Assembly (NCBI RefSeq): GCF_018397995.1
Contig: NZ_BBQH01000039.1
Location: forward strand, 1-64,000
Source: Rhizomonospora bruguierae
Lineage (GTDB): Bacteria; Actinomycetota; Actinomycetes; Mycobacteriales; Micromonosporaceae
Direction: 5' to 3'
Length of the DNA: 64,000 nucleotides
The notes beneath the pieces are model-generated. The model saw nothing but the letters and a program-made list of their open reading frames with translations. It made no database searches and was not told where the DNA came from. A program made the position numbers and the translations under genes. Of this stretch, positions 2,739-5,182 are shown in pieces; within the stretch, counting starts at the first letter, position 1, and the number at the start of each line of letters is the position of its first letter.

Positions 2739-2916
2739 CTGGAACCACCCCCTGCCGGACCCGTCTCAAGGAACCACGCCGATACGCCACCGGGCGGTGC
2801 GCACGGTGGCTGCGCAGAGCGTAACGCGAGATCAGTGCGCACGACCGGGCGGCGCACCGAAGATAGGCTCCGGGTGGCCTGCGGCGAGGGCCCCGGATGG
2901 TGTTGACTTGGCGGTG

Positions 2917-3426
2917 ATGGGCGGAACAGGCGGATACGGGGACGGGCGGGGGCGCTCGCGGCGGTTGGTGCTCGGCGCGGCGGCCGCCGGCGCGATGTCG
3001 GTCACAGCGGCCGGCTGCGGCCTGCTGGACCGGAGAAAACCCAAGCCGGACCAGCCGGACCCGCTGCTGCCCATGCTGGCCGAGACCCGCGACCTGACGG
3101 CGCGGTACGACGCCGCGATCGCCGCCCAGCCCAGCCTCACCGCCCGGCTGACGCCGCTGCGCGAGGCTACCGCCGAACACGCCACCGCGCTGGCCAAGCT
3201 GATCGGTTTGAGCGGATCCACCACCCCACCCGCGACCTCCCCCGGCCCGTCCGCACCGGCCACACCGCCGGCCTCACCGGTCGACGCCCTGGTCGACCTG
3301 CGCGCCGCCGAACAGGCCGCCCAGCGCACCGCCACCCAGGCGTGCCTGACCGCCCCGGGCGACCGGGCGGCCCTGCTCGGCTCGATCGTCGCCGCCCGCG
3401 CCACGCACCAGGCGGTCCTGGCATGA
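2917..3426 (+). CDS. Tat-type lipoprotein, probable ferritin-like helical protein
   Basis: A 169-residue exported protein. Residues 14-40 have the look of a twin-arginine signal ([17 protein letters not shown]) ending in a lipobox TAAGC, so it is probably a lipid-anchored extracytoplasmic protein. The mature part has helical stretches (LLPMLAETRDLTARYDAAI; LREATAEHATALAKLIG) split by a Pro/Thr/Ser linker, resembling the helix pairs of ferritin-like DUF4439 proteins. ATG 2917 is chosen because it places the Arg pair correctly. Its TGA is the left edge of the IS110 insertion. Before the insertion it should have overlapped the downstream DUF4439 gene as ATGA. Function unknown. Confidence 0.72.
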   Translation: MGGTGGYGDGRGRSRRLVLGAAAAGAMSVTAAGCGLLDRRKPKPDQPDPLLPMLAETRDLTARYDAAIAAQPSLTARLTPLREATAEHATALAKLIGLSGSTTPPATSPGPSAPATPPASPVDALVDLRAAEQAAQRTATQACLTAPGDRAALLGSIVAARATHQAVLA

Positions 3427-3435
3427 GTTGCCCTG

Positions 3436-3441
3436 TGTCAA
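3436..3441 (-). promoter_or_regulatory. Probable -35 half of the IS110 circle-junction promoter
   Basis: Read on the minus strand this is TTGACA, a perfect -35 hexamer, overlapping the recombinase stop codon at the right end of the element. If right and left ends join through the CT core, a -10-like CACCAT from the left end would lie 18 bp downstream, just ahead of the bridge RNA region. This matches the known logic of IS110 circles, where RNA and recombinase expression switch on after excision. The -10 assignment is weak. Confidence 0.45.
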
Positions 3442-4505
3442 GCCGCTGCCGGTTGATCTTGGTTGGGCAGGTGTTGGAGGGCTCCGTGGCGGTCGGGGTT
3501 GTAGGGGGTGTTGGTGGTCCAGCACTTCCAGATGATGTTCGGCCATGCGCGGGCGAGGATGCGTACGGCGTGTGGGTGGTCGCAGCCGCGGGCGCGGGCG
3601 CGGTTGTACGGATCGGCGGCCCAGGGGTTGGCGTGGCGGCTGTCGCCGGCGAAGTCGCCGACGGCGTCGCGCAGTTGTTTGTCGACGGCCCAGCGGAAGG
3701 CCACGACGGTGACTTTGCCGGATTGGCGGGTGGAGGGTGCGACGCCGGCGAGGCAGGCCAGGGAGTCCGGGGTGGGGAATCGGCCGCGGGCGTCGCGGAT
3801 CTCGGCGAGGAGTCGGGCGGCGCGGACGGTGCCGGTTTTGGGCAGGTTGGTGAAGATGTCCCGGTCGGGGTGCAGGGTGAGGGCTTCGCTGGTCTGCTGG
3901 GTCGGGGCGTCGATCTGCGTGGTGATGGCCTGGAGGGTGGTCAGGTAGGCGCGGGTGATGCCGGCCAGGGCCTGGCCGTGGTCGTCGGTGGCGCCGCGCG
4001 GCGCGGCGGTGATCCGGGTGTGCAGCACGGTGGGGTCGGTGCGGCCGCTGTAGCCGACGCTGGACAGCCAGGCGGCCAGGCGCTTGGGCGAGAGCCAGTC
4101 CATGGCGTTCTGGGTGGTGAAGCGGGTCAGGAACCGCAGGCTGATCGTGGAGTCGATGTCGCGGAAGAGGTCCACTGCGGCCGGCAGGGCGGTGGCCAGG
4201 TGGGCGCGCAGTTGGTTGGCCACCGCGACGCGGTGGGCGACGAGGTCTTTGCGGGCCCGGCGCAGCTTGCGCAGCGCGGTGGTGTCCGGGCTGTCCAGGA
4301 CGAGGGGGGTGAGTCGACGCCGGTCGGTGCGGACGGTGTCGGCCAGGACGTAGGCGTCGAACCGGTCGTCTTTGTTGCCGGCCGAGCCGTAGCGCTCCAG
4401 CGGCTCACCGTCGACGTCCACGACGCAGACCGCGTAGTCGTCCTTGGCCCAGTCCACGCCCGCGGAGTTTCCTCGCGCCGAGCCGGTGGTGTCAGTCAAA
4501 CTCAT
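3438..4505 (-). CDS. IS110-family recombinase, internally deleted
   Basis: A 355-residue DEDD/RuvC-like recombinase. N-terminal GVDWAKDDYAVCVVDVDGE is the first strand with the first Asp, NKDDRFDAYVLAD carries the last two acidic positions, and the C-terminal Transposase_20 domain has the APSTRQSGKV segment with the presumed catalytic Ser. Typical relatives run to about 400 residues. Here only some 25-30 residues separate the first Asp from the NKDD motif, where I expect 80-90, and GEPLER runs directly into YGSAGNKDD. The segment that should hold the second acidic residue (a Glu in an IERxDG-type motif) is missing. The frame is intact, so this is an in-frame deletion and the protein is probably catalytically dead. 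Confidence 0.9.
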   Translation of the reverse strand: MSLTDTTGSARGNSAGVDWAKDDYAVCVVDVDGEPLERYGSAGNKDDRFDAYVLADTVRTDRRRLTPLVLDSPDTTALRKLRRARKDLVAHRVAVANQLRAHLATALPAAVDLFRDIDSTISLRFLTRFTTQNAMDWLSPKRLAAWLSSVGYSGRTDPTVLHTRITAAPRGATDDHGQALAGITRAYLTTLQAITTQIDAPTQQTSEALTLHPDRDIFTNLPKTGTVRAARLLAEIRDARGRFPTPDSLACLAGVAPSTRQSGKVTVVAFRWAVDKQLRDAVGDFAGDSRHANPWAADPYNRARARGCDHPHAVRILARAWPNIIWKCWTTNTPYNPDRHGALQHLPNQDQPAAA

Positions 4506-4544
4506 AATCGCCTCTCCGCTGCGCTACCAGTGGGGAAGCACCTG

Positions 4545-4716
4545 GCGGTTCCGGGACACCACTGCCGGTCGCTCATTGAGCGGCGCTCGATAGCGCATAG
4601 CCCTGTTGCCAGTCGGGGTGTCCCGGGCCGTCGGGCCTCGCAGAACTCATGCTGGACCTCACAGGTCGAGCGAGCTGGGCGATGGCCCGACGGTCACCGG
4701 TGCGCCCGAACCCTCA
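4545..4716 (-). ncRNA. Bridge RNA of the IS110 element
   Basis: The non-coding left end folds into two consecutive stem-loops on the minus strand. Target-binding loop: 10-bp stem 4693-4684/4637-4628, inner hairpin 4667-4655, and guides CUCGCUC (4674-4668) and GCAUGAG (4652-4646). The first pairs with the flank GAGCGGG (4747-4753, one G-U); the second is the exact complement of the other flank read in element orientation (3427-3421). Donor-binding loop: 10-bp stem 4626-4617/4560-4551, with guides ACAGGGC (4606-4600), identical to the right end (3436-3430), and CAAUGAG (4578-4572), complementary to the left end (4749-4743). This is the IS621 bridge RNA layout. The outer boundaries are estimates; a weak 5' hairpin may lie near 4716-4700. 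Confidence 0.85.
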
Positions 4717-4744
4717 TCGGATCGAGCGAGACCATGGTGGACCA

Positions 4745-5182
4745 ATGAGCGGGTCCGCGGCCAAGAGCCTGGGCGCCGCGCTGGCCGGCGAGCACGCCGC
4801 CGTCTACGCCTACGGCGTCCTCGGCGTCCGCCTCACGGACAACTCCCTCGCCACGGCCGCGCGCAGCGCCGAGGCCGCCCACCGGGCCCGCCGCGAGTCC
4901 CTGATGGCGGCGCTCGCCGGGCTCGGCACCCCCGGTCCAGCCGCGAACGCCGGGTACCAGTTGCCCTTCCCGGTCACGGACAGCGCGTCCGCCATCAAGC
5001 TCGCCGTCCAGGTGGAGGAGAAGGCGGCGGCCCTGTGGCGGGCGGCGCTCGCCGACACCGACGGCGAGCAGCGCCGCACCGCCCTCGACGCCCTCGTCGA
5101 CTGCGCCGTCCGGGCGACCACCTGGCGCCGCGCGGGTTCGATCACGCCGCTCACCACCACCTATCCCGGCCGCCCCGTCTGA
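4745..5182 (+). CDS. DUF4439 ferritin-like protein
   Basis: A 145-residue protein of the DUF4439 ferritin-like family. Helices such as AKSLGAALAGEHAAVYAYGV and AVQVEEKAAALWRAALADT carry the spaced Glu/His residues expected of a four-helix bundle; metal binding is not shown. There is no signal peptide, so it is probably cytoplasmic. It was apparently the second gene after the lipoprotein at 2917, joined by an ATGA overlap, until the IS110 element separated them. Its ATG now comes from the last three bases of the element, which match the original codon. No strong Shine-Dalgarno is left, so expression may be reduced. Confidence 0.82.
   Translation: MSGSAAKSLGAALAGEHAAVYAYGVLGVRLTDNSLATAARSAEAAHRARRESLMAALAGLGTPGPAANAGYQLPFPVTDSASAIKLAVQVEEKAAALWRAALADTDGEQRRTALDALVDCAVRATTWRRAGSITPLTTTYPGRPV

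What the first reader, a model, noticed from the sequence alone, without database searches (positions are those of the whole stretch)
4545..4716. Complete bridge RNA whose four guides match the element ends and the actual target
Seen directly: on the minus strand the IS110 left end has two 10-bp stems, 4693-4684/4637-4628 and 4626-4617/4560-4551, each with an inner hairpin. In the first loop, CUCGCUC pairs with the flank GAGCGGG at 4747-4753 (one G-U), and GCAUGAG is complementary, in element orientation, to the other flank at 3421-3427. In the second loop, ACAGGGC equals the right end at 3436-3430 and CAAUGAG is complementary to the left end at 4749-4743. Known: this is the target-loop/donor-loop logic of IS621 bridge RNAs. 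Four guides in the right order make chance unlikely. It gives a target sequence for this element and a candidate programmable recombination system from an actinobacterium.
Basis: partly seen in the sequence, partly recalled or inferred. Interest (0 to 1): 0.9.

Follow-up and report, generated by a model that had tools for sequence, protein, structure and literature searches.

The report
IS110 element targeting operon gene junctions
A small jumping DNA element in an actinobacterium carries a guide RNA aimed at the spot where one gene's stop codon overlaps the next gene's start codon, and its other strand forms one uninterrupted reading frame between the two, so insertion leaves both genes whole; this copy is probably dead, but its relatives suggest how such elements hide inside operons.

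Summary
A bridge RNA with 5' stem-loop, target loop and donor loop lies in the left end of an IS110-group element. Across 33 relatives its stems show compensatory changes, and in 37-38 elements all four guides covary with their DNA (right target guide 6.82/7 matches, 5.24 shuffled).

Two corrections. The window's recombinase has lost 59 residues in frame, including the catalytic Glu of DEDD, so this copy is probably immobile. And the target is special: of 57 distinct insertions in relatives, 24 lie exactly on the TGA stop of a gene opposite the transposase, 14 of them also on the next gene's start (ATGA/GTGA overlap). In the window the site is the lipoprotein/DUF4439 overlap, seen uninterrupted in relatives.

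The strand antisense to the transposase is one open frame through the whole element, from the target's start codon to a TGA overlapping the next start codon (window 3423-4748). It is open in 23 of 36 elements. Its left-end part shows no amino-acid conservation, suggesting it is kept open for ribosomes rather than for a product. IS900 ('hed' ORF, translation-start targets) is the precedent. New variant of a known kind; nothing was tested at the bench.

The parts
3428..4749 (-). IS110-group insertion sequence, 1322 nt between the two core copies; the core TGAG (CTCA in element orientation) is present at both ends (3424-3427 and 4746-4749)
   Evidence: flank comparison with multi-copy relatives and uninterrupted homologous sites
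3438..4505 (-). recombinase ORF, 355 aa (relatives about 414); in-frame loss of 59 residues at the junction near 4395/4394 removes the DEDD glutamate; RuvC Asp and the serine motif (QSG) remain
   Evidence: Pfam PF01548 and PF02371; alignment A1 with 18 relatives
4703..4728 (-). 5' stem-loop of the bridge RNA
   Evidence: fold; equivalent hairpin visible in relatives' left ends
4628..4693 (-). target-binding loop module: 10-bp stem 4693-4684/4637-4628, 4 more pairs, inner hairpin
   Evidence: helix 1 has 10 of 14 pairs with changes on both sides
4668..4674 (-). left target guide CUCGCUC
4646..4652 (-). right target guide GCAUGAG
4551..4626 (-). donor-binding loop module: outer stem 4626-4617/4560-4551, inner stem, hairpin
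4600..4606 (-). left donor guide ACAGGGC
4572..4578 (-). right donor guide CAAUGAG
3436..3441 (-). TTGACA at the right end, -35 half of a promoter formed only in the excised circle; overlaps the recombinase stop codon
   Evidence: TTGACA-like, 17-18 nt, xAxxxT across the RE-LE junction in nearly all relatives
4734..4739 (-). CACCAT at the left end, -10 half of the circle-junction promoter
3423..4748 (+). open reading frame antisense to the recombinase through the whole element: ATG supplied by the target (overlapping the lipoprotein stop), TGA at the left end (overlapping the DUF4439 start), 441 codons
   Evidence: open and in frame in 23 of 36 elements
4736..4741 (+). SD-like GGTGGA upstream of the ATG restored at 4745
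   Evidence: SD-like 4-mers at 19 of 32 distinct left ends, 5.1 expected
2797..3426 (+). host gene upstream of the insertion: putative lipoprotein, stop codon TGA 3424-3426 retained
   Evidence: ORF; homologue next to DUF4439 in relatives
4745..5182 (+). host gene downstream of the insertion: DUF4439 protein, start codon ATG 4745-4747 retained
   Evidence: Pfam PF14530 E = 1.3e-38

Best explanation
This is a probably dead copy of an actinobacterial IS110-group element that moves by bridge-RNA-guided recombination and is adapted to live inside operons. Shown by sequence: the target loop, through the right target guide, is complementary to the stop/start overlap GC-NTGA-GC between two co-oriented genes; all four guides covary with target or donor in relatives; the core CTCA (TGAG on the gene strand) is shared by target and both element ends, so the upstream gene keeps its stop and the downstream gene gets back an ATG or GTG start from the left end; the strand antisense to the recombinase is an open frame from the target's start codon through recombinase gene and bridge-RNA gene to a TGA that overlaps the restored start, preceded in the junction-targeting elements by a Shine-Dalgarno-like motif. 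Inferred: ribosomes on the operon mRNA translate through the element and reinitiate on the next gene, which would limit polarity and make insertion nearly neutral; the bridge RNA and recombinase are expressed from a promoter formed in the excised circle.
For: Stem covariation: 92% of cells paired, 21 of 38 pairs changed on both sides, 10.3 in shuffles. Guide-target covariation, including natural reprogramming of the right guide between relatives: GCAUGAG/CTCATGC, GCGUGAG/CTCACGC, GCUUGAG/CTCAAGC, GCGGGAG/CTCCCGC, CGAUGAG/CTCATCG, GAUCGAG/CTCGATC. Junctions: 24 of 57 insertions on a stop codon; for sites with the target motif 23 of 39 against 12 of 212 for the same motif elsewhere in the flanks (Fisher 6e-14); stop plus start 14 of 39 against 10 of 212. 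Uninterrupted lipoprotein/DUF4439 pairs in relatives: 19 of 29 with a strict in-frame NTGA overlap. Antisense frame open in 23 of 36 elements with ten different left-end lengths, all 1 mod 3, while the other two antisense frames hold 224 and 396 stops; left-end part open in 18 of 18 such elements where dinucleotide shuffles predict 3.7. Frame-intact elements sit at junctions in 24 of 38 insertions, frame-broken ones in 2 of 19. Left-end codon positions vary evenly (78/58/67) and non-synonymous changes prevail, so openness rather than product seems kept. Circle-junction promoter.
Against: Gene calls come from my own codon-usage script, not from curated annotation. In these GC-rich genomes the antisense frame in register with the recombinase codons is naturally permissive: four distant IS110 elements have only 1, 1, 3 and 6 stops in it. 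Relatives share ancestry, so the Fisher and shuffle values overstate independence; the 18 elements of the left-end test were chosen as open; with about 6 changes of each trait on the tree the pairwise test has no power. At genome level the link between open frame and junction targeting is not significant (12 of 20 against 2 of 9, p = 0.11). The G229/G225/G173/G239 subclade has the open frame but intergenic insertions and no SD-like motif. Among motif sites outside genes about 60% are stops anyway (12 of 20), so guide sequence plus loss of intragenic insertions is enough to explain the junction excess. No expression data.
Confidence: 0.72

Rival explanations
1. An ordinary IS110 element with a bridge RNA. 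The junction preference is survivorship: the guide happens to match a motif common at gene starts, and insertions inside genes are lost. The antisense frame is open only because of GC-rich codon usage.
For: Background motif sites outside genes are about 60% stops (12 of 20 pooled), like the insertions; distant IS110s also have few stops in the in-register antisense frame; expected antisense stops from tnp codons are only about 0.9 per element.
Against: The frame also stays open through the 244-331 nt left end, which is not recombinase-coding, with indels in multiples of three (ten lengths, all 1 mod 3) and shuffles predicting 3.7 open of 18. Elements whose targets lack NTG have 27 antisense-stop codons in 9 elements (counted). 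SD-like motifs at the left end exceed expectation.
Confidence: 0.2
2. The antisense frame encodes a functional protein, as proposed for IS900 hed.
For: A long frame with start and stop; IS900 precedent.
Against: No Pfam match; no codon-position bias and mostly non-synonymous change in the left-end part; inside the recombinase gene its sequence is dictated by the other strand.
Confidence: 0.08
3. The window copy is active: the 59-residue gap is an assembly error or the shortened protein still works.
For: Draft assembly (182 contigs); the reading frame is preserved.
Against: The missing segment holds the DEDD glutamate present in all 18 aligned relatives; E60 mutants of IS621 do not recombine (PMC11208158); further changes at conserved positions (AEIG to AEIR, several Leu to Pro) suggest decay; only one copy in the genome.
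Confidence: 0.07

Closest known systems
IS621 bridge RNA system (IS110 family; Durrant et al. 2024 PMC11208160, Hiraizumi et al. 2024 PMC11208158)
   Same: Bridge RNA in the left end upstream of a DEDD recombinase; target loop then donor loop; four guides in the same order; CT core; promoter formed at the RE-LE junction.
   Different: Recombinase about 414 aa in intact relatives instead of about 326; right target guide 7 nt; left donor guide pairing stops two bases before the core; target is a stop/start gene overlap; whole-element antisense open frame; this copy lacks the catalytic Glu.
IS900 of Mycobacterium avium subsp. paratuberculosis (Doran et al. 1997, cited in PMC8141618)
   Same: IS110 family; aimed at translation-start signals; antisense 'hed' ORF spanning the element without its own RBS or start; insertions described as stealthy, only three genes disrupted.
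   Different: IS900 motif CATGN6TCTCCTT (RBS to start), not NTGA; no bridge-RNA guide explanation found in the papers read; restoration of the downstream start and lack of product conservation were not reported there. IS900 was not compared by sequence here.
seekRNA of IS1111/IS110 elements (Siddiquee et al. 2024, PMC11187229)
   Same: RNA from the long non-coding region selects the target; natural reprogramming; recombinases of the subgroup with founding IS110 are 395-455 aa, the size seen here.
   Different: Does not describe stop/start-junction targets or an antisense frame in the passages read.

Membership tests
IS110 family, IS110 group | DEDD (RuvC) plus Transposase_20 recombinase | tested here: met
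   PF01548 1.8e-17 and PF02371 3.3e-14; the full DEDD set is present in relatives but the Glu is missing in the window copy
IS110 family, IS110 group | long non-coding region upstream of the recombinase (left end), short right end | tested here: met
   left end 244 nt, right end 10 nt
IS621-type bridge RNA | 5' stem-loop, then two stems with internal loops, conserved structure | tested here: met
   the 5' stem-loop alone is weak (z = -1.4)
IS621-type bridge RNA | LTG, RTG, LDG and RDG complementary to target and donor and covarying with them | tested here: met
IS621-type bridge RNA | core dinucleotide included in all four guide pairings (as in IS621 itself) | tested here: not met
   included for RTG and RDG, and for LTG in the window; LDG pairing ACAGGGC ends two bases before the core, and in some relatives LTG pairs with only the first core base. 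A detail of IS621; filed therefore as IS110-group bridge RNA, not as an IS621 orthologue
IS621-type bridge RNA | RNA is made and binds the recombinase | not testable with these tools
   needs small-RNA sequencing and binding assays
IS621-type bridge RNA | promoter at the RE-LE junction of the circle | tested here: met
   TTGACA-like / 17-18 nt / xAxxxT across the joined ends in nearly all elements examined, as sequence only
IS900 (hed-bearing IS110) | antisense ORF through the whole element without its own start | tested here: met
IS900 (hed-bearing IS110) | target motif CATGN6TCTCCTT | tested here: not met
   targets are CTCANNN in most relatives, CTCATGC in the window
IS900 (hed-bearing IS110) | sequence relationship of recombinase and RNA to IS900 | not tested
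   no IS900 sequence was fetched
Rfam RNA families | match to a curated covariance model | tested here: not met
   no match at gathering or at E <= 1

The most novel reading that the evidence does not exclude
Some IS110 elements have evolved a translational relay: the bridge RNA aims them at NTGA overlaps of operons, and selection keeps the antisense strand, including the bridge-RNA gene itself, free of stop codons from the host's start codon to a TGA that overlaps a restored SD and start codon, so that ribosomes cross the element and the downstream gene stays expressed. One stretch of DNA would thus serve as recombinase gene, guide-RNA gene and, on the other strand, a ribosome passage.
Probability: 0.55. 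Interest if true: 0.78.

Novelty: new variant of a known kind. Interest (0 to 1): 0.62.

Why it matters
It gives a natural data set in which small changes in a bridge-RNA guide track changes in target sequence, points to intact actinobacterial recombinases for programmable insertion, and supplies a testable answer to what the antisense hed ORF of IS900 is for: an open passage for ribosomes rather than a protein. It would also be a case of a guide RNA aimed at the punctuation between genes, a way for a transposon to enter gene-dense operons at low cost.

Tried and rejected
Rfam gave no family at any threshold. A single-sequence PDB search found nothing and the profile search only a chance hit, so the DEDD residues were mapped by alignment among relatives and the published IS621 description. 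The own-genome and genus searches gave a single copy. Considered that the right-target matches might be element sequence rather than host: rejected by uninterrupted lipoprotein/DUF4439 pairs in relatives. Considered extended pairing beyond the 7-nt right guide (ACC/SD bases further out): dropped, the bases there belong to the inner hairpin. Considered that some extra mechanism over-selects junctions: background counts show guide sequence plus loss of intragenic insertions suffices. Considered a functional antisense protein: no codon-position signal, no Pfam match. The sigma-70 scan of the inserted form found no promoter, as expected if it forms only in the circle. Distant IS110 groups (30-34% identity) use other targets and do not show the fully open frame. 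One NCBIfam scan failed on wrong coordinates and was not repeated.

Full report
WHAT IS THERE. The minus strand of 3428-4749 is an IS110-group insertion sequence. Its recombinase ORF (4505-3438) matches PF01548 and PF02371. The 149 nt of target and donor modules fold far better than shuffles (z = -6.3). A 5' stem-loop precedes them at about 4728-4703. No Rfam family matches.

IS IT A BRIDGE RNA? Relatives were collected from the window's family (several records are Micromonosporaceae by title) and other actinomycetes and cut out with flanks; several genomes have 2-6 copies, which fixes the element ends. On an alignment of 33 distinct RNAs the proposed structure pairs in 92.2% of cells; 21 of 38 pairs have changes on both sides, against 10.3 in shuffles; structures slid by 1-3 columns pair in 37-46%. 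In 37-38 elements the guides match their own DNA: right target guide 6.82 of 7 (5.24 shuffled, z 12.4), left target guide 5.28 of 8 (4.09), left donor guide 6.92 of 7 (6.76), right donor guide 6.95 of 7 (6.50), 0 of 3000 shuffles reaching the observed value (relatedness not corrected). Examples: G194 GCAUGAG with CTCATGC; G213 and G259 GCGUGAG with CTCACGC; G286 GCUUGAG with CTCAAGC; G096 GCGGGAG with CTCCCGC and donor ACAGAGC with ACAGAGC; G444 GAUCGAG with CTCGATC. The joined ends form TTGACA-17/18-xAxxxT in nearly all elements, matching the circle-junction promoter reported for IS621 (PMC11208160).

THE WINDOW COPY IS PROBABLY DEAD. The 355-aa ORF lacks 59 residues present in all 18 aligned relatives, between GEPLE and RYGSAG; the gap includes the GIER glutamate of the DEDD set, and other conserved positions have changed. 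In IS621 mutation of E60 abolishes recombination (PMC11208158). The genome holds one copy and one further partial PF02371 match on contig C16, so no obvious helper. An assembly error cannot be excluded.

THE TARGET. Joining the flanks gives GGTCCTGGC-ATGA-GCGGGTCC: the stop of a putative lipoprotein gene overlapping the start of a DUF4439 gene. In most of 29 relatives the two genes lie side by side without an element; 19 show a strict in-frame ATGA or GTGA overlap, one reading GGTCTGGCATGAGCG. So the sequence complementary to the right target guide is host sequence. With a simple codon-usage gene finder written for this purpose, 24 of 57 distinct insertions sit exactly on the TGA stop of a gene running opposite to the recombinase, 14 of them also on the start of the next gene. 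For the same motif elsewhere in the flanks the figures are 12 and 10 of 212 (Fisher 6e-14 and 3e-7; not corrected for relatedness). In 1.2 Mb of background from three host genomes, full right-guide sites (GCTCATGC in G194, GCTCACGC in G259, GCTCATCG in G426) lie at stops in about 12 of 73 and inside genes in 53 of 73; leaving the latter out, about 60% are stops, much like the insertions. Guide sequence plus loss of intragenic insertions therefore explains the pattern. Among sequences GCTCANNN with at least 20 sites, TGC, the window's, has the highest share of stop/start overlaps (0.16), with CGA, TCG and CGG, used by relatives, next; CGC had none in this sample.

WHAT INSERTION LEAVES BEHIND. 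The shared CTCA core means the upstream gene keeps its TGA and the left end gives back ATG or GTG to the downstream gene. On the gene strand the element is a single open frame from the target's start codon to a TGA that overlaps the restored start: 3423-4748 in the window, 441 codons. It is open and in frame in 23 of 36 elements, of lengths 1322 to 1586; their left ends have ten different lengths, all 1 mod 3, although that region encodes the RNA; the other two antisense frames carry 224 and 396 stops in total. For 18 of these elements dinucleotide shuffles predict 3.7 open left ends. Elements with a broken frame are mostly those whose target has no NTG; both traits change about six times on the recombinase tree and never in opposite directions in independent pairs, but the number of pairs is too small for a test. 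Frame-intact elements sit at junctions in 24 of 38 insertions, broken ones in 2 of 19 (p = 2e-4 by insertion, 0.11 by genome). SD-like 4-mers precede the restored start in 19 of 32 distinct left ends, 5.1 expected.

FUNCTION OF THE FRAME. In the left-end part, changes are spread evenly over codon positions (78/58/67) and mostly non-synonymous, and no Pfam family matches. This points to selection for openness, not for a product. The inferred role is a relay that lets ribosomes cross the element and reinitiate on the next gene. Caveat: the in-register antisense frame is naturally permissive in these genomes (1, 1, 3 and 6 stops in four distant elements).

KNOWN AND NEW. Bridge RNAs and their logic are known (PMC11208160, PMC11208158, PMC11187229). 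IS900 is the closest precedent for the rest: Doran et al. 1997 (title, cited in PMC8141618) reported that it targets translation initiation signals for its hed gene, and PMC8141618 reports a whole-element antisense ORF without its own start, the motif CATGN6TCTCCTT and 'stealthy' insertions. Not found in the library searches: a guide RNA aimed at stop/start overlaps, restoration of the downstream start by the element end, or evidence that the antisense frame is kept open rather than conserved as a protein. The library lacks most subscription journals, so this is no proof of priority.

VERDICT. A real bridge RNA in a degenerate element: new member of a known kind as originally claimed. The junction targeting with an open antisense passage lifts it to a new variant of a known kind, with the relay function still to be tested.

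Noticed in passing
L145-L149 (G096) and L284-L288 (G099): Two distantly related IS110 elements (about 31% identity) in the same genus group sit in or beside the same repeated palindromic sequence CCCGCATGCTCCCGCGGGC, suggesting convergence of guides on one genomic repeat.
   Followed up: no
L150-L153, L156-L159 (G229, G239, G173, G225): A subclade keeps the whole-element antisense frame but has a well-matched left target guide, mostly intergenic insertions and no SD-like motif at the left end.
   Followed up: partly
G000:C16:3080-3238: A second, partial Transposase_20 match in the window's genome (286-aa open frame), perhaps a remnant of another IS110 element.
   Followed up: no
L010 and L005: Core neighbourhood differs from CTCA (CTAC, CTCT); in L010 the right guide reads CAAUAG, following the changed third base (CTA), with one remaining mismatch.
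   Followed up: no
L154, L155, L164, L170, L171: The donor-loop hairpin carries extra nucleotides in these bridge RNAs, a length variant.
   Followed up: no
window 3438-3441: The recombinase stop codon TGA is embedded in the TTGACA box of the right end in most elements of the clade, so stop codon, promoter half and donor site overlap or adjoin.
   Followed up: partly
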